The notes under the pieces were generated by a model that was given only the letters and a program-made list of their open reading frames with translations, was not told the origin of the DNA and did not search any database. Positions 16,659 to 29,394 of a DNA stretch of 64,000 nucleotides are shown piece after piece (within the stretch, counting starts at the first letter, position 1; each line of letters starts with the position of its first letter). The position numbers and the translations under genes were made by a program. Where the stretch lies: positions 62,001-126,000 of the forward strand of contig NZ_JACYXZ010000001.1 of the NCBI RefSeq assembly GCF_014842875.1, in the 5' to 3' direction. This DNA is from Nocardioides donggukensis (GTDB taxonomy: Bacteria > Actinomycetota > Actinomycetes > Propionibacteriales > Nocardioidaceae).

Positions 16659-18413
16659 GTGAGCACCACGAAGAGTCCACCCCCGCCCACGGACCCGTCC
16701 GGACGGTCCGCACCGCCGCCGGGAACCCCGCCCAGCAGTCAGGGGGGACTGTTCTCGAGCGTCGCCCCCGGTGTCTTCTGGCCGGCCTTGGCGATCGTGC
16801 TGGTGACCTCCGGTCTGGCGATCGCCTTCCCCGAGGGCACCGGCGAGGCCCTGGCCGCCGTCCAGGGGGACGTGATCGGCGGCTTCGGCTGGTTCTACGT
16901 CCTGCTGGTGGCCGGGTTCGTCGGCTTCGCGCTCTGGATGGGCTTCAGCCGGTTCGGTGACATCACGCTCGGCCAGGACGACGAGGAGCCGGAGTTCAGC
17001 CTCCCCGCCTGGTTCTCGATGCTCTTCGCCGCGGGCATGGGCATCGGCCTGGTCTTCTGGGGGGCCGCCGAGCCGCTGACGTTCTTCACCAACCCCAAGC
17101 CGGGCGTCGAGGGCGACTCGGGCGAGCTGGCGCAGTCCGCGATGGCCCAGGTCTTCCTGCACTGGGGCTTCCACGCCTGGGCGATCTACGTCGTCGTCGG
17201 GCTCGGGCTCGCCTACGCCATCCACCGCAAGGGCCGCCCGATCTCGATCCGTTGGGCGCTCGAGCCGCTGCTCGGCGAGGAGCGGGTCCGCGGTCGGTTC
17301 GGCGACGTCATCGACGTCGTCGCGATCGTCGGCACGGTGGCCGGTGTCGCCACCTCGCTGGGCCTCGGCGTCCAGCAGATCTCGGCCGGACTGGTCAGCG
17401 TCGGCGTCTTCGACGAGGCCGGGAAGCCGCTCATGGTGGGGCTGATCATCGCCATCACCATGCTCGCCATCGTCTCGGTGGTCTCGGGCGTCGGCCGCGG
17501 CATCAAGTGGCTCTCCAACGCCAACCTGGTGCTGGCCGGAGTGTTCCTGGTGGCCCTGCTGCTGCTCGGTCCGACCCTGTTCGTGATGCGCGAGTTCGTG
17601 CAGAGCCTGGGCGTCTACCTCAGCGAGGTGCTGTCGCTGACGTTCGACACCAGCGCCTACACCGGCGAGGACGGCCAGGCCTGGCAGGCCGCGTGGACCA
17701 CATTCTACTGGGGCTGGTGGATGTCCTGGGCGCCGTTCGTCGGTGTCTTCATCGCCCGGATCTCCCGTGGCCGCACCGTGCGCGAGTTCGTGGCCGGCGT
17801 GCTCCTCGTGCCGACGTTCGTGACCTTCCTGTGGTTCGCGGTGCTGGGCGGCACGGCCATCTACACCCAGATGCAGGAGGGCCAGACGCTGCTCGAGGAG
17901 GACGGCAGCATCGTGAGCGAGAACGTGCTCTTCAACCTGCTGGAGGGCCTGCCCCTGGGCGGCCTGCTGTCGGGGATCACGATCATCCTGGTGACGATCT
18001 TCTTCGTCACCTCCTCCGACTCCGGGTCGCTGGTCGTCGACATGCTCGCCTCCGGCGGCGACGCCGACCCGCCGAAGTGGAGCCGCATCCTGTGGGCCTC
18101 CATGGAGGGGCTCGTGGCCATCGGCCTGATGCTGGCCGGCGGTCTGATCGCGCTGCAGACCGGGGCGATCCTCACCGCGCTGCCGTTCAGCCTGGTGATG
18201 ATCGGCATCTGCCTGGCGACGTACCGAGCGCTCAAGGCCGAGCACCGGCTGCTGCTGCGGGCCGAGAGCCGGCAGCGCCGCGAGGAGCTGACCCGTGAGG
18301 TGGGCGACGAGCTGACGGACAACTTCGACGACCACTTCGCCGAGCCCGTCGAGCGCACGGTCGTCGACGTCCTCGAGCGCACCGAGAGGCGCGGCCGCAA
18401 GCGCAAGCCGTAG
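16659..18413 (+). CDS. BCCT-family transporter (choline/betaine/carnitine)
   Basis: The 584-residue protein has about 12 transmembrane helices. Family hallmarks are GMGIGLVFWGAAEPLTFF (~126-143) and WTTFYWGWWMSWAPFVG (~346-362), the aromatic region around the substrate cage. A proline-rich N-terminus of ~30 residues and a charged C-terminal tail (ERRGRKRKP-type) are cytosolic; the tail is osmosensory in BetP. Compatible-solute uptake is the likely role; substrate cannot be read from sequence. A Shine-Dalgarno AGAAGGA precedes GTG 16659, and TAGGGT at 16622-16627 is a possible -10 box giving a short leader. Two strong hairpins follow the gene. Confidence 0.93.
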   Translation: MSTTKSPPPPTDPSGRSAPPPGTPPSSQGGLFSSVAPGVFWPALAIVLVTSGLAIAFPEGTGEALAAVQGDVIGGFGWFYVLLVAGFVGFALWMGFSRFGDITLGQDDEEPEFSLPAWFSMLFAAGMGIGLVFWGAAEPLTFFTNPKPGVEGDSGELAQSAMAQVFLHWGFHAWAIYVVVGLGLAYAIHRKGRPISIRWALEPLLGEERVRGRFGDVIDVVAIVGTVAGVATSLGLGVQQISAGLVSVGVFDEAGKPLMVGLIIAITMLAIVSVVSGVGRGIKWLSNANLVLAGVFLVALLLLGPTLFVMREFVQSLGVYLSEVLSLTFDTSAYTGEDGQAWQAAWTTFYWGWWMSWAPFVGVFIARISRGRTVREFVAGVLLVPTFVTFLWFAVLGGTAIYTQMQEGQTLLEEDGSIVSENVLFNLLEGLPLGGLLSGITIILVTIFFVTSSDSGSLVVDMLASGGDADPPKWSRILWASMEGLVAIGLMLAGGLIALQTGAILTALPFSLVMIGICLATYRALKAEHRLLLRAESRQRREELTREVGDELTDNFDDHFAEPVERTVVDVLERTERRGRKRKP

Positions 18414-18419
18414 GTGGGA

Positions 18420-18487
18420 CCGGGCCGACCACGGAGTCGGCCCGGCCACCTCCCGCGCGGGCCCCACCGGCAGGACCGGTGGGGCCC
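18420..18487. terminator. Pair of GC hairpins after the BCCT gene
   Basis: Hairpin one has perfect 10-bp arms (18420-18429 and 18436-18445) with loop CACGGA. Hairpin two has perfect 12-bp arms (18459-18470 and 18476-18487) with loop CAGGA. They start 7 nt after the BCCT stop codon. No U-tract follows, as is common in high-GC actinobacteria. Both should fold on either strand; the termination role is inferred. Confidence 0.65.
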
Positions 18488-18625
18488 CGCGTGCGTCCTG
18501 GCCCGGGTGCCTGTCCCGGGTGCCTGGCCCGGTGGGTGTCCCGGCGATTGGCCGGGTGGGTGGCCGGTGAGCGGTCGGCGGAGTGCGGACGGCTCGGTGG
18601 GTGGCACGGGTTAGGGTCGTTCTCC

Positions 18626-20587
18626 GTGAGCACTCTCGACGACGCCCGACCCGGCATGAACCCCGACATCCGTCCCCAGGACGACCTCTTCGGTCACGTC
18701 AACGGCACCTGGCTGGAGGAGACCGAGATCCCCGGCGACCGCTCCAGCTGGGGGCCGTTCGTGCAGCTCGCCGACACCGCCGAGGAGCAGGTCCGGGAGA
18801 TCATCCTCGACCTCGCCGAGCGGGTCCGCGCGGCCGGACCCGGTGCCGAGCTGGACGAGAACGCCCGCCGCATCGGCGACCTGTACGCCTCCTTCATGGA
18901 CACCGACGAGATCGACCGGCGCGGCCTGGCGCCGGTGCAGCCGCTGATCCAGGCCGTCGAGGGTCTGCGCGACGTCCGCGACCTGGCGGCGTTCCTGGGC
19001 GAGTTCGAGCGGGTCGGCGGGGCGGGCCTGTTCGGGTCCTACATCGCCACCGACGACAAGTTCTCCGACCGGTACCTCGTCCACCTCACCCAGGGAGGGC
19101 TCGGGCTGCCGGACGAGTCCTACTACCGCGAGGACAAGTTCGCCGAGACCCGCGAGAAGTACGTCGGCTACCTCAGCCGCCTGCTCGCCCTGGCCGACCA
19201 CCCGAGCCCCGACGAGGCGGCCGCCACTGTGCTGGCCGTCGACACCCGGCTGGCCGCCGGCCACTGGGAGCGGGCCGAGACCCGCGACGTCCAGAAGACC
19301 TACAACCTGACCACCTTCGAGGAGCTCCTCGCACTCGCTCCGGAGTTCGACTGGCACGCCTACGTGCGCAACCTCGGTGGCTCCGACGAGACCCTCTTCG
19401 AGACCTGCGTCCGGCAGCCGTCGTACTTCGCGCACCTCTCGACGGTCCTCGGCGAGGTGCCCATCGAGCAGTGGCGGGACTGGATGCTGACCCGGGTGCT
19501 GCGCTCGGCGGCGCCGTACCTCACCGACGAGTTCGTCGAGACCAACTTCGACTTCTACGGCCGCACCCTCAACGGGACGCCCGAGCTGCGGGCCCGCTGG
19601 AAGCGCGCGGTGGCCTTCGTGGAGGGCGCCGTCGGCGAGGCGGTCGGCGAGGAGTACGTCGCCCGGCACTTCCCGCCGGAGTCGAAGGCGATGATGGACG
19701 AGCTCGTGGCCAACCTGCTCGAGGCCTACCGGCAGTCGATCGCCGACCTGGACTGGATGACCGAGGCCACCAAGCAGAAGGCATACGAGAAGCTCGCGAC
19801 CTTCCGGCCGAAGATCGCCTACCCGGACACGTTCCGCGACTACTCGGCGCTCCGGGTGACCGCGGACAGCCTCATGGGCAACGTCGCGGCGGCCGCCTCG
19901 TTCGAGACCGACCGGCAGCTGGCGAAGATCGGGTCGCCGGTGGACCGCGACGAGTGGTTCATGCTGCCGCAGACCGTCAACGCCTACTACAACCCGGGCA
20001 CCAACGAGATCTGCTTCCCCGCGGGCATCCTGCAGAAGCCGTTCTTCAGCCCCGACGCCCACCCGGCGGAGAACTACGGCGGCATCGGCTCGGTCATCGG
20101 GCACGAGATCGGGCACGGGTTCGACGACCAGGGGGCGCAGTACGACGGCCACGGCAACCTCAACGACTGGTGGACCCCGGACGACAAGGCGGCCTTCGAG
20201 GTGAAGTCGAAGGCGCTGGTCGCCCAGTACGACGGCTTCTCGCCGCGCGCGCTGCCCGGGGAGCACGTCAACGGCTCGCTCACCGTCGGCGAGAACATCG
20301 GCGACCTCGGCGGCCTGACGATCGGGCACACGGCGTACCGGATCTCGCTGGGCGGTGCCCCGCTGTCGGAGGAGGACTCCCGGCGGGTCTTCCTCAGCTG
20401 GGCCTACTGCTGGCGCACCAAGCGTCGCGTCGAGCAGGAGCGGCAGTACCTCACCATCGACCCGCACTCGCCGCCGGAGTTCCGGGCGAACATCGTCCGC
20501 AACCTCGACGAGTTCCACACCGCCTTCGGCACCGCGGAGGGCGACGGCCTCTGGCTCGACCCCGCCGACCGGGTCCGCATCTGGTGA
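18626..20587 (+). CDS. M13-family (neprilysin-like) zinc endopeptidase
   Basis: The 653-residue metallopeptidase has NAYYNPGTNEICFPAGIL, the zinc motif GHEIGHGFDDQG (~491-502) and ENIGDLGGL with the third ligand Glu, plus the C-terminal RxNIVRN-type segment seen here as FRANIVRNLDEF. There is no signal peptide, so unlike eukaryotic neprilysin it appears to be cytosolic, as in many actinobacteria. Length matches bacterial PepO. GTG 18626 gives MSTLDDARPGMNPDIRPQDD; ATG 18656 would remove ten residues. It degrades oligopeptides. The gene ends five nt before an array of 32-bp-period repeats. Confidence 0.93.
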   Translation: MSTLDDARPGMNPDIRPQDDLFGHVNGTWLEETEIPGDRSSWGPFVQLADTAEEQVREIILDLAERVRAAGPGAELDENARRIGDLYASFMDTDEIDRRGLAPVQPLIQAVEGLRDVRDLAAFLGEFERVGGAGLFGSYIATDDKFSDRYLVHLTQGGLGLPDESYYREDKFAETREKYVGYLSRLLALADHPSPDEAAATVLAVDTRLAAGHWERAETRDVQKTYNLTTFEELLALAPEFDWHAYVRNLGGSDETLFETCVRQPSYFAHLSTVLGEVPIEQWRDWMLTRVLRSAAPYLTDEFVETNFDFYGRTLNGTPELRARWKRAVAFVEGAVGEAVGEEYVARHFPPESKAMMDELVANLLEAYRQSIADLDWMTEATKQKAYEKLATFRPKIAYPDTFRDYSALRVTADSLMGNVAAAASFETDRQLAKIGSPVDRDEWFMLPQTVNAYYNPGTNEICFPAGILQKPFFSPDAHPAENYGGIGSVIGHEIGHGFDDQGAQYDGHGNLNDWWTPDDKAAFEVKSKALVAQYDGFSPRALPGEHVNGSLTVGENIGDLGGLTIGHTAYRISLGGAPLSEEDSRRVFLSWAYCWRTKRRVEQERQYLTIDPHSPPEFRANIVRNLDEFHTAFGTAEGDGLWLDPADRVRIW

Positions 20588-20591
20588 CCCC

Positions 20592-20740
20592 CCGACCCGT
20601 CGCTTGTGTCGGCCCTGCACGCGCCGACCCGTCGCTTGTGTCGGGCGTGCACGCGCCGACCCGTCGCTTGTGTCGGGCCCGCGCACGCCGACCCGTCGCT
20701 TGTGTCGGGTCTGAGAGCCGCGACCCGTCGTGAGTGTCAG
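20592..20740 (+). repeat. 32-bp-period array, five copies of a 21-bp repeat (forward)
   Basis: Copies start at 20592, 20624, 20656, 20688 and 20720, exactly 32 bp apart. The first four are identical: constant left part CCGACCCGTCG, a three-base core CTT, right part GTGTCGG. The fifth is degenerate and supplies the GTG start codon of comB at 20730. The 11-nt spacers are similar but not identical (for example CCCTGCACGCG, GCGTGCACGCG). Ends can pair (CCGAC/GTCGG). Confidence 0.92.
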
Positions 20741-21476
20741 CGGGCAACGGGATGCCGGTGTCCGGTTCGCCTGGGGAGAGGCGGGCGCGCGGGCGTGCGG
20801 CGGCGACCTTGCCGTCGTGGTCGACGTGCTCTCGTTCTCGACCACGCTGACCGTGGCCGTCGAGCGAGGGATCGAGGTGTTCCCCTTCCGGTGGGCCGAT
20901 GCGCGCGCGGCGGCGTACGCGAGCGAGTGCGGGGCCGTGTTGGCCGTCGGGCGGTCCGAGGCGCGGGATGGCGAGGTCAGCCTGTCGCCGGCGTCGGTCC
21001 GGAGGGCGGTCGACGTCGACCGGCTGGTGCTGCCGAGCCCCAACGGCTCCACGATCAGCAGCGCTCTGGCCTCGTCGGGGACGACCGTCCTGGGCGGCTG
21101 CCTGCGCAATGCCGCGTCGGTGGCCCGGTCGGTCGCCGACCTGCTGGACGAGGGACGAGGCCCGCTGACCGTGGTGGCCGCAGGCGAACGGTGGCCGGAC
21201 GACTCGTTGCGGCCGGCCGACGAGGACCTCTGGGGTGCCGGCGCGATCCTGGCGGCCCTCGACGACCGCGGCGTGGGCGGCTTCGCGCAGGAGGCGCGGA
21301 CGGCCGAGCGCGCGTTCCGTTCCGTCCGGGACGAGCTCGGCCGGGCCCTGGTCGCGTGCGAGAGCGGCGCGGAGCTGATCGGCAAGGGGTACGCCGACGA
21401 CGTGGCCATCGCCGGCGAGGTCGACTCGTGCGAGGTGGTCCCGATCCTGGAGGGCGAGCGCTTCGTCCCCCGCTGA
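20730..21476 (+). CDS. comB: ComB-like 2-phosphosulfolactate phosphatase family protein
   Basis: The 248-residue product matches the ComB fold: VVVDVLSFSTTLT (~31-43) and LPSPNGSTIS (~95-104) are the conserved motifs holding the active-site Mg and phosphate. In methanogens ComB hydrolyses phosphosulfolactate for coenzyme M; actinobacteria lack that pathway as far as known, so the real substrate is uncertain. The only good start is GTG 20730, which lies inside the last degenerate copy of the upstream 21-bp repeat; no Shine-Dalgarno is seen. Further repeat copies lie downstream, so the gene is bracketed by them. Confidence 0.82.
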   Translation: MSVSGQRDAGVRFAWGEAGARACGGDLAVVVDVLSFSTTLTVAVERGIEVFPFRWADARAAAYASECGAVLAVGRSEARDGEVSLSPASVRRAVDVDRLVLPSPNGSTISSALASSGTTVLGGCLRNAASVARSVADLLDEGRGPLTVVAAGERWPDDSLRPADEDLWGAGAILAALDDRGVGGFAQEARTAERAFRSVRDELGRALVACESGAELIGKGYADDVAIAGEVDSCEVVPILEGERFVPR

Positions 21477-21502
21477 CCCCGGCTGACCCCGGCTGACCCG
21501 CG

Positions 21503-21648
21503 CCGACCCGTCGCCAGTGTCGGCCTCGGACCTGCCGACCCGTCGCTTGTGTCCTGCTCGAACCCGACAGTAACGACGGGTCGGCGGGCTGGGCGCCGAC
21601 AGTAACGACGGGTCGGCGGGCTGGGCGCCGACACAAGCGACGGGTCGG
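21503..21648. repeat. Facing 32-bp-period repeat arrays between comB and recQ
   Basis: Two forward copies (21503-21523 with core CCA; 21535-21555 with altered last two bases) are followed by three inverted copies (21564-21584, 21596-21616, 21628-21648). Within each orientation starts are exactly 32 bp apart. The first two inverted copies have core TTA when read forward; the third is a perfect consensus. Orientation flips between 21555 and 21564, in the gap between comB and recQ. Confidence 0.92.
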
Positions 21649-21738
21649 CGCACCGGAGCGACCCGGGCGGCCCGCCCGCGTCCACAGACGGCACCGGGCG
21701 CCGGGCGGCGCCGGTCCGGCCGCTGGTAGACAGAGCCC

Positions 21739-23880
21739 ATGACTGCAGCGACCCAGGACGACCCCGCCCGCGTGGCCGCCCGGGAGGCCGCCGAGCAGCA
21801 CCTCCGAGCCCTGGTCGGACGGGACGACGCCACGCTCCGCGAGGACCAGTGGACCGCGATCGAGGCGCTCGCGGTCGACCACCGCCGGGCCCTGGTCGTG
21901 CAACGCACCGGGTGGGGGAAGTCGGCCGTGTACTTCGTGGCCACGGCGTTGCTCCGCGCCCAGGGCGCCGGGCCCACCGTGATCATCTCCCCCCTGCTCG
22001 CGCTCATGCGCAACCAGATCGCCGCCGCGGACCGGGCCGGCATCCACGCCGTGACGATCAACTCCACCAACAACGAGGACTGGAGCCGGATCGAGGACTC
22101 GATCCGCGCCGGGGACGTCGACGTGCTGCTGGTGAGCCCGGAGCGGCTCAACAACCCGTCGTTCCGCGACCAGGTGCTCCCGCGGCTGGCGGCCACCGCC
22201 GGGCTCGTCGTGGTCGACGAGGCGCACTGCATCTCCGACTGGGGCCACGACTTCCGGCCGGACTACCGACGCATCCGCACCCTCCTCGGCGAGCTCCGCG
22301 AAGGCATCCCGGTGCTGGCGACCACCGCGACGGCCAACGAACGGGTGACCCGCGACGTCGCCGAGCAGCTGGTCCCGACCGGTACGGCGACTCCGGACGG
22401 GCCGGCTCGGCCGGACGGCGAGGTCGTCGTCCTGCGGGGCGAGCTCGACCGGGCCTCACTGCACCTCGCGGTGGTCCGGCTCAAGACCGCGGAGCAGCGG
22501 CTGGGCTGGCTGGCCGACCACCTCGGCGACCTCCACGGCTCCGGGATCATCTACTGCCTGACGGTCGCGCAGACCCAAGAGATCGCCGACTTCCTCCGGG
22601 CGCGCGGCCACACGGTGGCGGCGTACTCGGGCCAGACCGAGGCCGGCGAGCGCGCCGCCCTCGAGACCGACCTCGCCGAGGGGCGGGTCAAGGCACTGGT
22701 GGCCACGAGCGCCCTGGGCATGGGCTTCGACGCGACGCTCGGGTTCGTCGTGAACGTCGGGGCGCCGTCCAGCCCGGTCGCCTACTACCAGCAGGTCGGC
22801 CGCGCCGGGCGCGGCACGGACCGCGCCGACGTGGTGCTGCTGCCGGCGCGCGAGGACCGCGACATCTGGGCGTACTTCGCCTCGCTGGCCTTCCCGCCCG
22901 AGGGCCTGGTGCGGCAGGTCCTCTCGGTCCTCGACGGCGCCGACGGCGCGCTCGCCACCCCCGCCCTCGAGACGTACGTCGACCTGGGCCGCTCGCGGCT
23001 GGAGATGCTGCTGAAGGTGCTCGACGTCGACGGTGCGGTCCGCCGGGTCCAGGGCGGCTGGGTCTCGACCGGGCAGGAGTGGGCCTACGACCGGGATCGG
23101 TACGCCCGGGTCGCCGAGGCCCGTGAGCGCGAGCAGGCGGCGATGCTGGACTACCTCGGCACCGACCGGTGTCGCATGCGCTTCCTGCGGGACCAGCTCG
23201 ACGACCCGGCCAGCCAGGACTGCGGTCGCTGCGACAACTGCGGGGGTGTGAGCTTCAGCGCCGAGGTGTCGGAGTCGTCGGTGAGCCTGGCGCACGACCG
23301 GCTCAGCCGTCCCGGCGTGCCGGTGCCGCCCCGCAAGATGTGGCCGACGGCCCTGGTCAACCTCGGCATCGACCTCAAGGGCAAGATCGCGGACCCACCC
23401 AGTGAGGGGCGCGTCGTGGCCCGGCTGACCGACCTCGGCTACGGCCAGCAGCTGCGCGACCTGTTCCGCGAGGGCACGCCGGACGGGCCGGTGCCGGTGC
23501 CGCTGGTCAGGGCGGTGATCGCGGTGCTCGAGGACTGGCAGCCTCGGGCACAGGCCATCGTCCACGTCGAGTCCGCCCGTCGCCCGACCCTGGTCCGAGA
23601 CTTCGCCGACGGGCTCTCGCGGTTCCTGCGGATCCCGGTCGTGGGGCGGTACGCGATCGCGGACGCCGGCGTCGGCCCCGGGCAGGGTGCCGCGAACTCC
23701 GCGCAGCGGGTGGCGGCCGTACTGCGACGACACCGGCTCGAGGCGGAGGTGCCGGCCGGGCCGGTGCTGCTGCTCGACGACCTGGTCGGGACCGGCTGGA
23801 CCATGACGCTCGCGGCCCGGGCGCTCCGCGAGGCCGGCGCGAGCGACGTACATCCGCTCGCGCTGGGCAGCACCGGCTGA
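21739..23880 (+). CDS. RecQ-family DNA helicase fused to a phosphoribosyltransferase-like domain
   Basis: The 713-residue protein has a superfamily-2 helicase core: QRTGWGKSAV (Walker A, ~55-64), ISPLLALMRNQI, VVDEAHCISDWGHDFRPDY (~158-176, the RecQ-specific DEAH plus aromatic loop), and QVGRAGRG (motif VI). A four-cysteine zinc site follows (CRMRFLRDQL ... DCGRCDNCGG, ~475-500). The last ~150 residues end with LLLDDLVGTGWTM (~675-687), the PRPP-binding loop of ComF-like phosphoribosyltransferases; no HRDC domain is seen. It probably acts in DNA repair. TAGACA (21727-21732) ends 6 nt before ATG 21739. Repeat arrays flank both ends. Confidence 0.9.
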   Translation: MTAATQDDPARVAAREAAEQHLRALVGRDDATLREDQWTAIEALAVDHRRALVVQRTGWGKSAVYFVATALLRAQGAGPTVIISPLLALMRNQIAAADRAGIHAVTINSTNNEDWSRIEDSIRAGDVDVLLVSPERLNNPSFRDQVLPRLAATAGLVVVDEAHCISDWGHDFRPDYRRIRTLLGELREGIPVLATTATANERVTRDVAEQLVPTGTATPDGPARPDGEVVVLRGELDRASLHLAVVRLKTAEQRLGWLADHLGDLHGSGIIYCLTVAQTQEIADFLRARGHTVAAYSGQTEAGERAALETDLAEGRVKALVATSALGMGFDATLGFVVNVGAPSSPVAYYQQVGRAGRGTDRADVVLLPAREDRDIWAYFASLAFPPEGLVRQVLSVLDGADGALATPALETYVDLGRSRLEMLLKVLDVDGAVRRVQGGWVSTGQEWAYDRDRYARVAEAREREQAAMLDYLGTDRCRMRFLRDQLDDPASQDCGRCDNCGGVSFSAEVSESSVSLAHDRLSRPGVPVPPRKMWPTALVNLGIDLKGKIADPPSEGRVVARLTDLGYGQQLRDLFREGTPDGPVPVPLVRAVIAVLEDWQPRAQAIVHVESARRPTLVRDFADGLSRFLRIPVVGRYAIADAGVGPGQGAANSAQRVAAVLRRHRLEAEVPAGPVLLLDDLVGTGWTMTLAARALREAGASDVHPLALGSTG

Positions 23881-23897
23881 GACCCGGAGCCGTCAGG

Positions 23898-23982
23898 CCG
23901 ACACAAGCGACGGGTCGGCGGTCTGGGGGCCGACACAAGCGACGGGTCGGCGGTCTGGGGGCCGACACAAGCGACGGGTCGG
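23898..23982 (-). repeat. Three inverted copies of the 21-bp repeat after recQ
   Basis: Perfect copies in reverse orientation start at 23898, 23930 and 23962, again a 32-bp period, with identical 11-nt spacers CGGTCTGGGGG. They begin 18 nt after the recQ stop. Identical spacers here and in the array before recQ, but different spacers elsewhere, suggest local tandem amplification of single founder copies. Confidence 0.92.
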
Positions 23983-24027
23983 CGGTGAGGCGGCGTACCC
24001 CGGGCGGGGCTGGGTCGTTGTGTCCAC

Positions 24028-25974
24028 ATGCCCTTCCGCCGGACCCATCGCCCGCGCAGCGTCCCGGGCCACCGCCCGCGTCACCTCATGCTCCGCTTCC
24101 TGGCCACCGTGCTGGTCGGGTCCGCGCTGGCGGTGCTCCCCGCCGCTCCGGGGACGACTGCCGCGCCGGGGACGACTGCCGCGCCGGGGACGACGGCTGC
24201 TCCGGGGACGACGGCCGCGCCGGCTGGCGTGGCGCCGCGGATCACTGCCGGGCCCTCGCACTCGGTGACCACGCTGCACTTCCGGGTCCGCGTGGGGGAG
24301 CAGGGCGACCGGGTCTGCGACATCGTCGGCGACCTCTACCGCCCCGACGGCGCCAGCCGGGAGGACCGGGCACCCGCGGTGCTCACCACGAACGGCTTCG
24401 GCGGCTCCAAGGACGACCAGGCCGGGATGGCGGGGTTCCTCGCCGACCGCGGCTACGTGGTGCTCAGCTACTCCGGGCTCGGCTTCGGCGGCTCGGGCTG
24501 CAAGATCACCCTGGACGACCCCGACATCGACGGCCGGGCGGCCAGCCAGCTGGTCGGCTACCTCGGTGGCCGGCGCGGCATAGCCTTCCGCGACGCCGAG
24601 CACAGCGAGCCGGCCCCGCGGCTGCGGGTGGTCCGGCGGGACCGCCGTGACGCCGAGGGCAGGCGCTCGCGGCACGACCCGCGGGTCGGCATGGTGGGCG
24701 GCTCCTACGGTGGCGCGATCCAGTTCGCCGCGGCCTCGGTCGACCCGCGCATCGACGCGCTCGTGCCGCTGATCACCTGGAACGACCTCTCCTACTCGCT
24801 CGCGCCGAACAACACCGGACAGACCGGCGTCAGCAGCGCCGTCACCGGCTCGGTGAAGCTGACCTGGGGCCTGGGCTTCTCCGGTCTCGGCGTGGTCAAC
24901 GGGCTCCAGCACGCGGGCGCCGACCCGGCCCGGCTGACCCCGTGCCCGAACTTCGCCGACTTCGTCTGCCCGACCCTCGCGTACGCCGGCGTGACCGGCG
25001 GCTTCGACGACACCTCGATCGGTCACTTCCGGCACGCGTCGGCCGCGTCGTACATGGAGCGGGTGACGGTGCCGACCCTGCTGATCCAGGGCCAGAACGA
25101 CACCCTGTTCAACCTCAACGAGGGGGTGGCGAACTACCGGGCCCTGCGCCGCCAGGGCACGCCGGTCAAGATGATCTGGCAGTGGTGGGGCCACTCGCTG
25201 GGCCAGCCGGCGCCGGGCGAGCTCGATCTCGACGACCCGGACCCGCGGACGCAGTACCTCACCCGGCGGATCGTGCGCTGGTTCGCCCGGCACCTCGAGG
25301 ACCGCAGCGTCGGCACCGGACCCCGGTTCGCCTACTTCCGGGACTGGGTGGACTACGAGGGTCGTGCCGACCCGGCCTACGCGACCTCGAAGAGCTACCC
25401 GGTCGGCGTCCGCGCCCGATACCGCCTGTCCGGCTCCGGGCTGGAGCCGGAGGGCGATCCGGTCACCCCGGGCAGCCAGAGCTTCGTGACGCCGGTCTCC
25501 GGCCTGCCGTCCTCGGCCGACGAGCCGGACGTCATCGGCTTCGCCGGCGTCCCCTCCCCGCTGCCGGAGACCGACGCACCGGGCACCTTCGCCCAGTGGG
25601 CCACCGAGCCGCTGGAGCGGGCGGTGCGGGTGGTGGGCAGCCCGGAGCTCGACGTCCGGGTGCAGGCGCCGCTGGCGGCGGGACCGCAGTCCGGCGACCC
25701 GGCCGGGCAGCTGGTGCTGTTCGCGAAGCTGGTCGACGTGGCGCCGGACGGCTCCGCGACGGTGCTGCGCAACCTGGTGGCGCCGGTCCGGGTGGCCGAC
25801 CCGTCGCAGCCGTTCACGGTCACCCTGCCCGCGGTCGCCTACCGCTTCGCCGCCGGCCACCGGATCAGGCTGGTGCTCTCCGGCGGGTCGACGAACTACC
25901 GCGGGAACCTGGTGGGCCAGCCGGTCACGGTCGAGGCCGGCGCGGGCCAGGTGCTGAGCCTGCCGGTCCGCTGA
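24028..25974 (+). CDS. Secreted CocE/S15-type alpha/beta hydrolase (X-Pro dipeptidyl-peptidase family)
   Basis: The 648-residue protein has a hydrophobic signal segment LRFLATVLVGSALAVLP, a linker made of four APGTTA repeats, an S15 catalytic domain with GMVGGSYGG (nucleophile Ser ~230) and LLIQGQNDTLFN plus a late His in WWGHSLGQ for the triad, and a C-terminal jelly-roll domain (~440-648) ending in HRIRLVLSGG. Substrates are esters, amides or Pro-peptides. ATG 24028 gives a long Arg-rich n-region; ATG 24088 would place the signal peptide at the start and is equally possible, as neither has a clear Shine-Dalgarno. Confidence 0.88.
   Translation: MPFRRTHRPRSVPGHRPRHLMLRFLATVLVGSALAVLPAAPGTTAAPGTTAAPGTTAAPGTTAAPAGVAPRITAGPSHSVTTLHFRVRVGEQGDRVCDIVGDLYRPDGASREDRAPAVLTTNGFGGSKDDQAGMAGFLADRGYVVLSYSGLGFGGSGCKITLDDPDIDGRAASQLVGYLGGRRGIAFRDAEHSEPAPRLRVVRRDRRDAEGRRSRHDPRVGMVGGSYGGAIQFAAASVDPRIDALVPLITWNDLSYSLAPNNTGQTGVSSAVTGSVKLTWGLGFSGLGVVNGLQHAGADPARLTPCPNFADFVCPTLAYAGVTGGFDDTSIGHFRHASAASYMERVTVPTLLIQGQNDTLFNLNEGVANYRALRRQGTPVKMIWQWWGHSLGQPAPGELDLDDPDPRTQYLTRRIVRWFARHLEDRSVGTGPRFAYFRDWVDYEGRADPAYATSKSYPVGVRARYRLSGSGLEPEGDPVTPGSQSFVTPVSGLPSSADEPDVIGFAGVPSPLPETDAPGTFAQWATEPLERAVRVVGSPELDVRVQAPLAAGPQSGDPAGQLVLFAKLVDVAPDGSATVLRNLVAPVRVADPSQPFTVTLPAVAYRFAAGHRIRLVLSGGSTNYRGNLVGQPVTVEAGAGQVLSLPVR
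24145..24216 (+). repeat. Four 18-bp tandem repeats coding APGTTA
   Basis: Four in-frame 18-bp units (24145-24162, 24163-24180, 24181-24198, 24199-24216) encode Ala-Pro-Gly-Thr-Thr-Ala just after the signal peptide of the CocE-like hydrolase. The units differ only at synonymous third positions. Such repeats are prone to copy-number change, and the linker is Thr-rich enough for O-glycosylation, which is a guess. Confidence 0.9.
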
Positions 25975-26062
25975 GCCTGCCGGTCCGCAGATGCGGACGG
26001 CTCAAGGACGCTGCCGATCCGCCGGAACCCGCCGCCGACCCGGGTGACGGGTCGGGCTGGGC

Positions 26063-26548
<486 letters not shown>

Positions 26549-26616
26549 GGTCCGAGCCTACGGATGTCGGTGGGCCGCGCTAGCGTCAGGACCCCACCCC
26601 GAGGAGGCAGCACCAC

Positions 26617-29394
26617 GTGAGCTTCGTCCCCGTCACCGGGCCGGCCACCTTCCGGGCGGCGGTCCCGGCCCGCGAGAGCGAGGTCGAGTTCACCGACGGC
26701 CGGCGGACGGTCACCCTGCCGGTGCGGGCGGCGCTCCCGGTGCTGACCCGGGCCCACACCCGCGACGACGTCCACCCCAGCGTCGGGCTGCTGGCCGGGG
26801 CCGCGCTGCTCGGGATGCGGTTCGTGGCGGCCGGGCACCTCGAGCCGGTCGCCGACGGGTGGCGGGTCGGTCCGCTCGACCCCGACGACGAGGAGCGGGT
26901 GCGGCTGCTGGCGGTGGCCCGCGCCCACGCCGGCGAGGCCGACCCGGAGGCACTGGTACGCCGGGTGGTCGACGCCGTGGCCGACGCGCTGCCGCGCTCC
27001 GCGCCGCGCGCCGCCGGACACCGCACGGCCGCGACCCGCACCTCCGGGGCGGCCCGGCCGAGCGGTGTGGCCGGGCCGGGCGAGGTGACCGGGGCCGGCC
27101 TCGCTCCGCGCTCGGCCGGGGCCCGGACGGGGAGCCCCGGCTTCGCGGCCAGACTGCAGGCCCGGCTGGCCGGGCACGCCGAGCCCGACGAGCGACCCCA
27201 GCTGGTCACGTTGAGCCTGCGGGTCGAGGCCGACGAGGACGAGCTGGTCGGGGGCTTCGTCCGGATCGTGCTGCAGGTGCACGACGAGCAGAACCCGCTC
27301 CACTTCTGCGACGCCGCGACGTTGTGGACCGAGTCCGGCCCGGACGCCACGCACGGGTTCGGCGACCGGGCCCGGACCCACGCCACCATCGCCCTGCGGG
27401 CGGCGGCCGAGGAGTGGCCGGTGCTGGACCGCCTCCTCGAGCTGCGGGTGCCGGACCAGCTCACGCTGGACGCCGTCGAGCTGGCCTCGCTCCTCGACGA
27501 GGGTCTGACCGGGCTGAAGCGCCGCGGTGTCGACGTCCTCTGGCCGCGCAGCCTCGGCGCCGACCTGACCTCGCGCACCGTCCTGCGGCCGGGGAGCGGG
27601 CGCGACGAGCCGCTGACCGACGGGCTCTTCGGCCCGGCCTCGCTGTTCTCGTTCAGCTGGCAGCTCAGCCTCAACGGCGACCCGCTCACCGAGCAGGAGA
27701 TGGACGCCCTCGCCGCGGCGGCCAGCCCGGTGATCCGGCTCCGGGACCACTGGGTGGTGGTCGACCCGGCCACCGCGCGCCGCGCGAAGCGTCGGCTGGT
27801 GCGCACCGCCAAGCCGGCGCAGGCGCTGGCGGCCACCCTCACCGGCGTGGTCACCGTGGACGAGGTGGAGACCGAGGTGGTCGTCGGCGCGACGCTGCAC
27901 CAGGTGCGGGAGCGGCTGCGCACGGCGGCCGTGCGGGAGCCGGTCCCGACGCCGGCGGGGCTGGCCGCGACGCTGCGCGACTACCAGCGGCACGGGGTGA
28001 CGTGGCTGGCCGAGATGACCGGCCTCGGCCTGGGCGCGTGCCTGGCCGACGACATGGGCCTGGGCAAGACGGTCACCGTGATCGCGCTGCACCTGCACCG
28101 GGTGCAGGCCGGGGTGGCCACCGGACCGGTCCTCGTCGTCTGCCCTGCCTCGCTGCTCGGCAACTGGCAGGCCGAGATCGAGCGGTTCGCCCCCGGGGTG
28201 CCGGTGCGCCGCTTCCACGGCGGCGAGCGGTCGCTGGAGGGCGTCGAGGGCGGGTTCGTGCTCACGACCTACGGCACCATGCGCAGCGACGCCGCTGGCG
28301 CCCGGGCCCTGCAGACCGGACCCGGCTGGGACCTGGTCGTCGCCGACGAGGCCCAGCACGTCAAGAACCCCCGGTCCGGGACGGCGAAGGCGCTGCGCCG
28401 GATCGACTCGACCGGCCGGGTGGCGCTCACCGGCACCCCGGTGGAGAACGACCTCACCGAGCTCTGGGCGATCCTGGACTGGGCGGTGCCCGGGCTGCTC
28501 GGCTCCCGCAACGCCTTCCGCAAGGTCTGGGCGGCCCCGATCGAGGCCGGGGTCGACCCGGCGGTGACCCGGCGGTTCGCCGAGCTCATCGCCCCCTTCC
28601 TGCTTCGGCGCCGCAAGTCCGACCCCGGCATCGCCCCGGAGCTGCCGGCCAAGACCGAGACCGACCACCTGCTGGCGCTGACCCGGGAGCAGGTGGTGCT
28701 CTACGAGGCCCTGGTCAGGGACTCGATGGAGCGCATCGAGCGGGCCGACGAGCACACTCGGCGCGGTCTGGTGCTGGCCCTGCTGACCGGGTTGAAGCAG
28801 ATCTGCAACCACCCGGCGCACTACCTGCGCCAGCCCGGCGGCCGGCTCGCGGGGGGGTCGGAGAAGCTGGACCTGCTCGACGAGCTGGTGGGGACCGTCC
28901 TCGCCGAGGACGGCGCGGTGCTGGTGTTCACCCAGTACGTCGCCATGGCCCGGCTGGTCGAGGCCCACCTCGCCGCGAGCGGCGTACCGACCCAGCTGCT
29001 GCACGGCGGCACCCCAGTGCGCGAGCGCGAGGCCATGGTGCGTCGCTTCCAGGCCGGCCGGGAGGCTGGTGGGCCTCCGGTCTTCCTGCTCTCGCTCAAG
29101 GCCGGCGGCACCGGACTCAACCTCACCGCCGCCGACCACGTCGTCCACTTCGACCGGTGGTGGAACCCGGCGGTCGAGGACCAGGCCACCGACCGGGCGC
29201 ACCGGATCGGTCAGACCCGGCCGGTGCAGGTGCACCGCATGGTCTGCCAGGGGACGATCGAGGAGCGGGTCGCCGAGCTGCTGGGCCGCAAGCGGGCGCT
29301 GGCCGACTCGGTCCTGGCCCGCGGCGAGGGGGCGCTGACCGAGCTGGACGACGCGGAGCTGCGCGACCTGGTCACGCTGCGGCCCCAGCGGTGA
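26617..29394 (+). CDS. SNF2-family DNA-dependent ATPase
   Basis: The 925-residue protein has an N-terminal ~420-residue region with no catalytic motifs, seen in bacterial SNF2 proteins, then a complete Swi2/Snf2 motor: DDMGLGKTVTVIALHL (~478-493), VADEAQHVKNP (DEAQ box ~575), LTGTPVENDLTELWAI (motif III), and LKAGGTGLNLTAADHVVHFD plus ATDRAHRIGQTRPVQV (motifs V-VI). It translocates on DNA and is probably involved in transcription or repair. GAGGAGG precedes GTG 26617. Its stop overlaps the start of the SWIM-domain gene (GTGA), a pairing common in actinobacteria. Confidence 0.94.
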   Translation: MSFVPVTGPATFRAAVPARESEVEFTDGRRTVTLPVRAALPVLTRAHTRDDVHPSVGLLAGAALLGMRFVAAGHLEPVADGWRVGPLDPDDEERVRLLAVARAHAGEADPEALVRRVVDAVADALPRSAPRAAGHRTAATRTSGAARPSGVAGPGEVTGAGLAPRSAGARTGSPGFAARLQARLAGHAEPDERPQLVTLSLRVEADEDELVGGFVRIVLQVHDEQNPLHFCDAATLWTESGPDATHGFGDRARTHATIALRAAAEEWPVLDRLLELRVPDQLTLDAVELASLLDEGLTGLKRRGVDVLWPRSLGADLTSRTVLRPGSGRDEPLTDGLFGPASLFSFSWQLSLNGDPLTEQEMDALAAAASPVIRLRDHWVVVDPATARRAKRRLVRTAKPAQALAATLTGVVTVDEVETEVVVGATLHQVRERLRTAAVREPVPTPAGLAATLRDYQRHGVTWLAEMTGLGLGACLADDMGLGKTVTVIALHLHRVQAGVATGPVLVVCPASLLGNWQAEIERFAPGVPVRRFHGGERSLEGVEGGFVLTTYGTMRSDAAGARALQTGPGWDLVVADEAQHVKNPRSGTAKALRRIDSTGRVALTGTPVENDLTELWAILDWAVPGLLGSRNAFRKVWAAPIEAGVDPAVTRRFAELIAPFLLRRRKSDPGIAPELPAKTETDHLLALTREQVVLYEALVRDSMERIERADEHTRRGLVLALLTGLKQICNHPAHYLRQPGGRLAGGSEKLDLLDELVGTVLAEDGAVLVFTQYVAMARLVEAHLAASGVPTQLLHGGTPVREREAMVRRFQAGREAGGPPVFLLSLKAGGTGLNLTAADHVVHFDRWWNPAVEDQATDRAHRIGQTRPVQVHRMVCQGTIEERVAELLGRKRALADSVLARGEGALTELDDAELRDLVTLRPQR

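What the first reader, a model, noticed from the sequence alone, without database searches (positions are those of the whole stretch)
20592..23982. Thirteen copies of a 21-bp repeat, exactly 32 bp apart within arrays, bracketing comB and recQ
Four arrays (5, 2, 3 and 3 copies) surround just two genes. Within every array the period is exactly 32 bp (three helical turns), while spacers differ between arrays. The unit has constant arms (CCGACCCGTCG left, TGTCGG right) and a variable 3-base core (CTT, CCA, TTA, TGA). Orientation flips once, between comB and recQ. Helical phasing suggests cooperative protein binding or an RNA with regularly spaced hairpins; the clustering around a DNA helicase is notable. 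I do not recognise the family.
Basis: seen in the sequence. Interest (0 to 1): 0.72.

Follow-up and report, generated by a model that had tools for sequence, protein, structure and literature searches.

The report
Helix-phased repeat arrays at gene ends
This bacterium carries about 150 copies of a short DNA word, mostly in arrays that start close to where genes stop, at spacings that match whole turns of the DNA helix; related species show the same layout with other words, and the arrays likely mark where reading of a gene should end, probably with the help of a protein not yet found.

Summary
In detail: 13 copies in four arrays (5, 2, 3, 3), period 32. The recQ link does not: the genome holds 153 copies (up to 1 mismatch, control 0), recQ is strongly matched in 38 of 39 genomes searched, and the word is private to this genome among 215 of its genus. 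The units are a 3'-end repeat: 54 of 70 arrays examined follow a gene in sense, 49 of 54 within 30 bp of the called stop; the core is not found in 14.4 kb of divergent gaps. Congeners carry similar arrays of other words; eight words share a head, CCGASNNGKC. Periods (21-22, 31-32) and facing distances fit whole helical turns; divergent gaps and coding DNA do not. At one gene end 13 of 17 chosen genomes carry an array, in four word types; at array 1's site 20 of 20 relatives show none. Placement resembles REPs, but palindrome, tag and RAYT were tested and not met. Best reading: likely boundary arrays read by an unidentified protein; untested at the bench.

The parts
18629..20587 (+). M13-family peptidase gene (frame used here); array 1 starts 4 bp after its stop
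   Evidence: PF05649 and PF01431; stop at 20585-20587
20592..20740 (+). Array 1: five sense units at 20592, 20624, 20656, 20688, 20720 (period 32)
   Evidence: no array seen at this site in 20 of 20 relatives' flanks
20720..20740 (+). Unit 5 (2 mismatches); holds the GTG codon at 20730 that opens the comB frame listed by the ORF tool
20730..21476 (+). comB-like 2-phosphosulpholactate phosphatase gene
   Evidence: PF04029, 80 bits
21503..21555 (+). Array 2: two sense units at 21503 and 21535, 26 bp after the comB stop
21564..21648 (-). Array 3: three inverted units at 21564, 21596, 21628; junction to array 2 is 29 bp start to start
21739..23880 (+). RecQ-type helicase gene; widely kept in relatives, not specific to the arrays
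   Evidence: PF00270, PF00271; strong match in 38 of 39 genomes
23898..23982 (-). Array 4: three units at 23898, 23930, 23962, antisense to the gene before them (an exception to the rule)

Best explanation
The units are copies of a genome-wide repeat that sits mostly in sense orientation at gene ends, in arrays whose spacing matches whole turns of the DNA helix, and they likely work as transcription-unit boundaries (terminator-like blocks) when a DNA-binding protein, not yet identified, binds the units on one face of the helix. Shown: location, orientation, period, head-on arrangement, absence of the core from the divergent gaps examined, other words with the same layout in other species, and different words after the same stop at one orthologous gene end. 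Inferred: that a protein reads the word; that binding slows or stops RNA polymerase after the stop codon; that facing arrays serve two converging genes or, by forming a long hairpin in the transcript, act as a two-way terminator; that one word replaced another in place rather than being lost and regained; and that copies spread and are homogenised within a genome by a copying process of unknown enzyme.
For: Sense placement: 54 of 70 arrays follow a same-strand gene, 49 of 54 within 30 bp of its called stop; 11 antisense, 5 inside a called gene. Core pattern CGACNNGTCGN4TG in own stretches: 71 in 11.4 kb convergent, 73 in 31.6 kb co-directional, 0 in 14.4 kb divergent, 20 in 440 kb coding. Unit profile: of 163 units, positions 3-11 and 16-19 differ from consensus in 0 to 4 units each, while 12-15 vary freely; units were picked with a pattern allowing up to 3 mismatches, but the mismatches fall mostly at positions 1, 2, 20 and 21. 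Spacing kept while spacers change: 89 of 93 at 32 bp, spacer identity 0.75 within and 0.48 between arrays. Phasing: tandem repeats of 18 bp or longer in convergent gaps, n=22, R=0.67 at 10.5 bp, p=5e-5; divergent n=9, R=0.19; coding n=24, R=0.06. Facing distances of the CCGAGTCGG word, n=19 among listed places: best period 10.55 bp, R=0.64, reached by 0.0002 of random sets; no listed pair faces the other way. At a fadJ-like gene end 13 of 17 chosen genomes have an array after the same stop, in four word types. No compensatory base pairs.
Against: No binding protein was found or searched for, and no transcript data were available. Two-strand arrays fold into strong hairpins (18 of 18), which alone could end transcription. 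At the fadJ-like site two genomes have an unrelated palindrome instead (G109, G178), which fits a hairpin need as well as a boundary need. Array 4 and 10 other arrays are antisense. Three of 19 junctions in the own stretches (22, 22, 30 bp) are neither modal nor a whole turn away. Co-directional gaps show weaker phasing (n=19, R=0.35, p=0.09), as do arrays without the shared head (n=23, R=0.36, p=0.053); words with a shared head may have inherited their period, so cases are not independent. Facing distances of 51-53 bp may be 20-21 plus a missed 32-bp unit.
Confidence: 0.42

Rival explanations
1. The arrays are hairpin terminators only: facing units form a long stem in the RNA, which ends transcription in both directions, and the word itself is arbitrary.
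For: Two-strand arrays fold far better than shuffles (mean z -6.84, 18 of 18). At the fadJ-like gene end most of the 17 genomes keep an inverted repeat of some kind after the same stop, including an unrelated palindrome in G109 and G178 (by eye). T at position 1 is commoner than A at position 21 (30 and 11 of 163, p=0.002), as a G-U tolerant stem would allow.
Against: One-strand arrays (27 clusters) fold little better than shuffles and about as well in antisense (z -1.12 and -0.96). No compensatory changes in either possible stem. Single units of eight words fold no better than shuffles (z from -1.13 to +1.62). A hairpin needs no 10.5-bp phasing.
Confidence: 0.25
2. The units are a REP-like selfish element that copies itself to gene ends, tolerated there because it does little harm, with no host function.
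For: Array 1 is present here and not seen after the same conserved stop in 20 of 20 relatives. Copy number differs strongly between genomes. REPs have the same placement near 3' ends and can supply stop codons (PMC3733652, section 15 read).
Against: No Y1/RAYT transposase match in this genome. Placement is polar and phased. At the fadJ-like site arrays of four word types follow the same stop in 13 of 17 genomes, which a neutral insertion would not require, though that locus and most of those genomes were chosen for carrying one of the words.
Confidence: 0.22
3. The arrays are supercoil-relief sites, such as gyrase sites, placed where supercoils build up near converging genes, as recalled for some BIME elements.
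For: Convergent-gap enrichment and helical phasing. BIMEs and REPs are described as binding sites for several proteins (PMC2817692, start of abstract in the listing).
Against: Near-invariant core positions suggest sequence-specific reading rather than bending alone. No gyrase data were examined here.
Confidence: 0.08

Closest known systems
REP elements (GTAG- and CGTC-tagged repetitive extragenic palindromes)
   Same: Short, high-copy, mostly extragenic, next to the 3' ends of convergent or co-directional genes, often within 20 bp, sometimes supplying the stop codon; some families species-specific; CGTC REPs also lack a dedicated transposase (PMC3733652: abstract, passages and sections 14-15 read).
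   Different: Units here are not palindromic across words, bear no end tag, form head-to-tail arrays (which that paper calls absent, under-represented or negligible) and keep a whole-turn period. The word Actinobacteria does not occur in that paper's main text; a 2025 survey lists predicted REPs in three Actinomycetota genomes of other genera (PMC12306157, passages).
BIMEs (bacterial interspersed mosaic elements)
   Same: Regularly spaced units in more than one orientation, between genes.
   Different: BIME units alternate in orientation (PMC2817692, start of abstract in the listing); here + units come first and - units follow.
Intrinsic hairpin terminators of actinobacteria without a U-tract (I-shaped; recalled, not tested against a set)
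   Same: Facing arrays make a GC-rich stem directly after the stop.
   Different: One-strand arrays lack such a stem; the same word recurs at many loci.

Membership tests
REP element | Short, high-copy, mostly extragenic repeat | tested here: met
   153 copies at up to 1 mismatch, control 0; 5 of 70 arrays inside a called gene
REP element | Placement near the 3' ends of convergent or co-directional genes | tested here: met
   54 of 70 arrays; 49 of 54 within 30 bp of the called stop
REP element | Unit is a palindrome that forms a stem-loop | tested here: not met
   Own unit -6.4 kcal, z -1.13; seven other words z -0.50 to +1.62; no compensatory pairs
REP element | Unpaired GTAG or CGTC tag at one end | tested here: not met
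   By eye on the eight words: CGTC is internal in the own unit (positions 7-10) and no word begins or ends with either tag
REP element (GTAG type) | RAYT (Y1 tyrosine transposase) in the genome | tested here: not met
   PF01797: 0 matches in G000; the same search rings in 5 of 14 control genomes
REP element / BIME | Head-to-tail neighbours rare; inverted pairs the rule | tested here: not met
   93 same-strand neighbours at 31-33 bp against 19 facing junctions (counted)
Intrinsic hairpin terminator | Stable hairpin directly after the stop | tested here: inconclusive
   Two-strand arrays 18 of 18 at z -2 or below; one-strand arrays 7 of 27
Intrinsic hairpin terminator | Ends transcription in vivo | not testable with these tools
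   Needs Term-seq or reporter data
Known structured RNA | Match to an Rfam family | tested here: not met
   0 matches in window 17000-27000 at gathering scores
Protein-bound operator array | A cognate DNA-binding protein | not tested
   No candidate searched; needs a pull-down

The most novel reading that the evidence does not exclude
A genus-wide system of helically phased boundary arrays in which each species uses its own dialect of one word, and a fast-evolving DNA-binding protein co-evolves with the word, so that gene-end sites across the genome are rewritten in place when the dialect changes.
Probability: 0.22. Interest if true: 0.86.

Novelty: new variant of a known kind. Interest (0 to 1): 0.62.

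Why it matters
If the arrays end transcription by a bound protein, this would be a polar, phase-dependent boundary system at many gene ends. Different words after the same stop in related genomes give a natural experiment on how many sites and one reader could change together. It also offers a REP-like repeat without palindrome or RAYT, which bears on the question raised in PMC3733652 of how repeats without a dedicated transposase spread.

Tried and rejected
Link to recQ: rejected; recQ is strongly matched in 38 of 39 genomes while the word is private. RAYT or IS200-type mobilisation: no PF01797 match in the genome. Known RNA family: no Rfam hit in window 17000-27000. Private words in every congener: k-mer scans of 400 kb each found no strong word in G021, G013 and G012; arrays there were found only by a gap-by-gap search. 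Motif CGASNNGTCRN4TG as a common key: strong in G000 and G001, a few hits in G013, G012 and G014, none in the convergent or co-directional gaps of G021, G002, G003, G007 and G017, and not enriched in other genera, so a looser head was used. That head, with 1 mismatch allowed, also occurs in 50 of 454 random 60-bp gap pieces, so single assignments are weak; the words were aligned by eye, and the 22-bp repeats of G002 and G003 did not fit. RNA stem with compensatory changes: not seen.

Literature: eight searches, some using the unconfirmed name Nocardioides, listed no paper whose title or abstract start describes such arrays. Of two papers opened, I read abstract, passages and sections 14-15 of PMC3733652 and passages of PMC12306157; others were seen only in search listings.

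Limits and corrections: one G012 locus is counted twice (L343 and L264); without it 40 of 47 spacings are 31 bp and 7 of 11 junctions are 26/27. In one search the set for that word repeats one junction (G074), so its R is not used; the null there drew 14-60 bp while one distance is 107. The gene caller was home-made; the own stretches were chosen because they hold units and are part of the gap counts; several cut-offs were tried for phasing. Array spacing was defined as 30-34 bp; same-strand neighbours under 100 bp are all 31-33, while a variant cluster at C1:1171521 has 42 and 33 (not fetched).
Full report
What is in the window. Thirteen units of CCGACCCGTCGNNNNTGTCGG (11 exact, two with 2 mismatches) lie in four arrays at 20592-23982, on the + strand before 21560 and on the - strand after it. 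Inside each array the starts are 32 bp apart; the two facing arrays between comB and recQ are 29 bp apart start to start. The genes are an M13-family peptidase, a comB-like phosphatase, a RecQ-type helicase and an S15-type peptidase. No Rfam family matches window 17000-27000.

Genome-wide picture. The genome (3.41 Mb, 5 contigs) has 153 copies of CCGACCCGTCGNNNGTGTCGG with up to one mismatch, 76 forward and 77 reverse, against 0 for the reversed control, and 176 copies of the core GACCCGTCN5TGTC, control 0. Of 215 genomes of the genus, the own one included, 18 others have a single match of CGACCCGTCGNNNNTGTCGG and 196 have none. recQ is strongly matched in 38 of 39 genomes searched, the own one included; G039 has only a weak helicase match. 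The cluster around recQ is therefore one of many: the 34 own stretches examined hold 51 clusters.

Where the units sit. I fetched 33 further stretches of the own genome, chosen because they hold units, and with the window found 163 units in 70 same-strand arrays, 18 of them single units. With a home-made gene caller, 54 of 70 arrays follow a gene on the same strand, 11 are antisense and 5 lie inside a called gene. The distance from stop to first unit is within 30 bp in 49 of 54; in 17 the called frame ends inside the array, as a rule at a TGA made by the unit or its spacer. Six genes end in ...DPS because their last codons are the unit itself (whether those genes are related was not tested). 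The core pattern CGACNNGTCGN4TG occurs 71 times in 11.4 kb of convergent gaps, 73 times in 31.6 kb of co-directional gaps, 0 times in 14.4 kb of divergent gaps and 20 times in 440 kb of coding sequence.

What the unit looks like. Positions 3-11 and 16-19 differ from consensus in 0 to 4 of 163 units each, positions 12-15 vary, and the 11-bp spacer has only a loose consensus. Units were picked with a pattern that allows up to 3 mismatches, which favours this result; still, the mismatches fall mostly at positions 1, 2, 20 and 21. Spacer identity is 0.75 within arrays and 0.48 between arrays, yet 89 of 93 spacings are 32 bp, 3 are 31 and 1 is 33. Length is kept while sequence changes. One-strand arrays fold little better than shuffles (27 clusters, mean z -1.12 in sense, -0.96 in antisense); two-strand arrays fold strongly (18 clusters, mean z -6.84). 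There are no compensatory changes in either possible stem.

Other species. Nine congeners were sampled, four at 400 kb each and five at 80 kb each, and I looked gap by gap for tandem repeats. G001 carries the word GTCACGTCTGCAGGTCGA, 124 copies with up to one mismatch, with one copy in one other genome. In the sampled G001 stretches it forms 9 clusters, 7 of them between converging genes, mostly at period 21, with 8 junctions of 36-38 bp. G021 has CGCCGACTCGGCACTCAGTTC at period 22, 13 copies with up to two mismatches, single copies in five others. The word GCGCGAGGAAGTGCCCGCTCGG (up to two mismatches) occurs in 34 of 215 genomes and in 5 or more copies in 13; in the loci read, chosen for holding it, 40 of 47 spacings are 31 bp after removing a locus that one search counted twice. 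CCGAGTCGGCGCATCNTG (up to one mismatch) occurs in 55 of 215 and in 5 or more copies in 21, while its reversed control reaches 6 in one genome. Read in sense and aligned by eye, eight words begin CCGASNNGKC and differ in the rest; 22-bp repeats of G002 and G003 did not fit. The head CCGASNNGKCRC occurs 32 times in 24 kb of convergent gaps of the sampled congeners other than G001, against a mean of 2.3 and maximum of 6 for 30 permuted patterns, and once in 9.8 kb of other genera. Part of that sample was used to find the words and part was fetched because it holds one of them, so this is not an independent test.

Helical phasing. Tandem repeats (score 15 or more) occur in 59 of 175 convergent, 66 of 590 co-directional and 15 of 350 divergent gaps, own stretches included. 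For periods of 18 bp or more, one per genome and period, convergent gaps give R=0.67 at 10.5 bp (n=22, p=5e-5; without the own genome n=16, R=0.77), divergent gaps R=0.19 (n=9) and coding sequence R=0.06 (n=24). Co-directional gaps are weaker (n=19, R=0.35, p=0.09). Several cut-offs were tried. Split by head, arrays with the shared head give R=0.71 (n=15, p=6e-4) and the rest R=0.36 (n=23, p=0.053). A second measure is the distance between facing units of the CCGAGTCGG word among the places listed: 14, 14, 20, 20, 21, 24, 31, 31, 32, 32, 32, 33, 45, 51, 52, 53, 53, 53, 107. A scan from 7 to 15 bp finds the best period at 10.55 bp (R=0.64; 0.0002 of random sets reach it), and no listed pair faces the other way. 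Some of the longer distances may hide a missed unit. In the own stretches 13 of 19 junctions are 28 or 29 bp; of the others 39, 39 and 70 lie whole turns away, 22, 22 and 30 do not (counted).

Two orthologous gene ends. After the stop of a fadJ-like gene (named from recall), flanks of 17 of the 18 genomes searched were read (G001 was not fetched). The locus was chosen because G012 has an array there, and 13 of the 17 genomes because they carry the GCGCGAGG word. Eight have that word at period 31 or 32, three a CCGAGTCGG-type word, the own genome its own word, and G014 a CCGACCCGTCGCGTTTGAAC-type word: 13 arrays in four word types. G013 is unclear, G109 and G178 have an unrelated palindrome, and G021 has none. 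Types were assigned by eye except for the first. After the stop of the M13 peptidase, where the window has array 1, 20 of 20 flanks fetched from relatives show no array by eye, and none reaches a tandem score of 15 (highest 13.5, G014); in G018, G151, G007 and G178 comB follows directly, as read from the sequence (G004 had no match). So an array can arise at a gene end in one lineage, and at another gene end arrays of different words stand after the same stop.

Interpretation. Location, polarity and phasing point to a DNA-level element at transcript ends. I take a boundary or terminator-like array bound by a sequence-specific protein as most likely (0.42). Facing arrays could also act as RNA hairpins (0.25), and copying without host function remains possible (0.22). 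The mended counts did not change these odds.

Known kinds. REPs share placement, copy number, and the habit of supplying stop codons (PMC3733652, sections 14-15 read), but palindrome, end tag, RAYT and the rarity of head-to-tail neighbours were tested and not met. It works much like a REP in placement, but I do not file it as one. Eight literature searches listed no description of such arrays.

Noticed in passing
window 2933 and about 13 sites in 505 kb of own stretches: A second dispersed element around the palindrome CCGCAATTGCGG; four gaps hold copies 51 bp apart.
   Followed up: no
window 21739-23880: The RecQ-type helicase has a weak C-terminal phosphoribosyltransferase-like match (PF00156, 23.1 bits, below its cut-off of 26.3), and this C-terminal part aligns in the congeners' best matches.
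   Followed up: partly
window 24145-24230: The S15-type peptidase gene begins with tandem GGGGACGACNGC-type repeats that encode an APGTTA-like stretch.
   Followed up: no
L368 and L369 (G109, G178, fadJ-like gene end): The same long palindrome (GGCGCTGTAACGCCGGGTT and its complement) stands where relatives have arrays.
   Followed up: no
L161 8205: A long 16-bp tandem array (unit CGCCGACGACCGGGCG, score 130.5) between converging genes, unrelated to the 21-bp word.
   Followed up: no
G000:C1:1171521-1172697: A variant subgroup with core GCATC, spaced 42 and 33 bp instead of 32.
   Followed up: no
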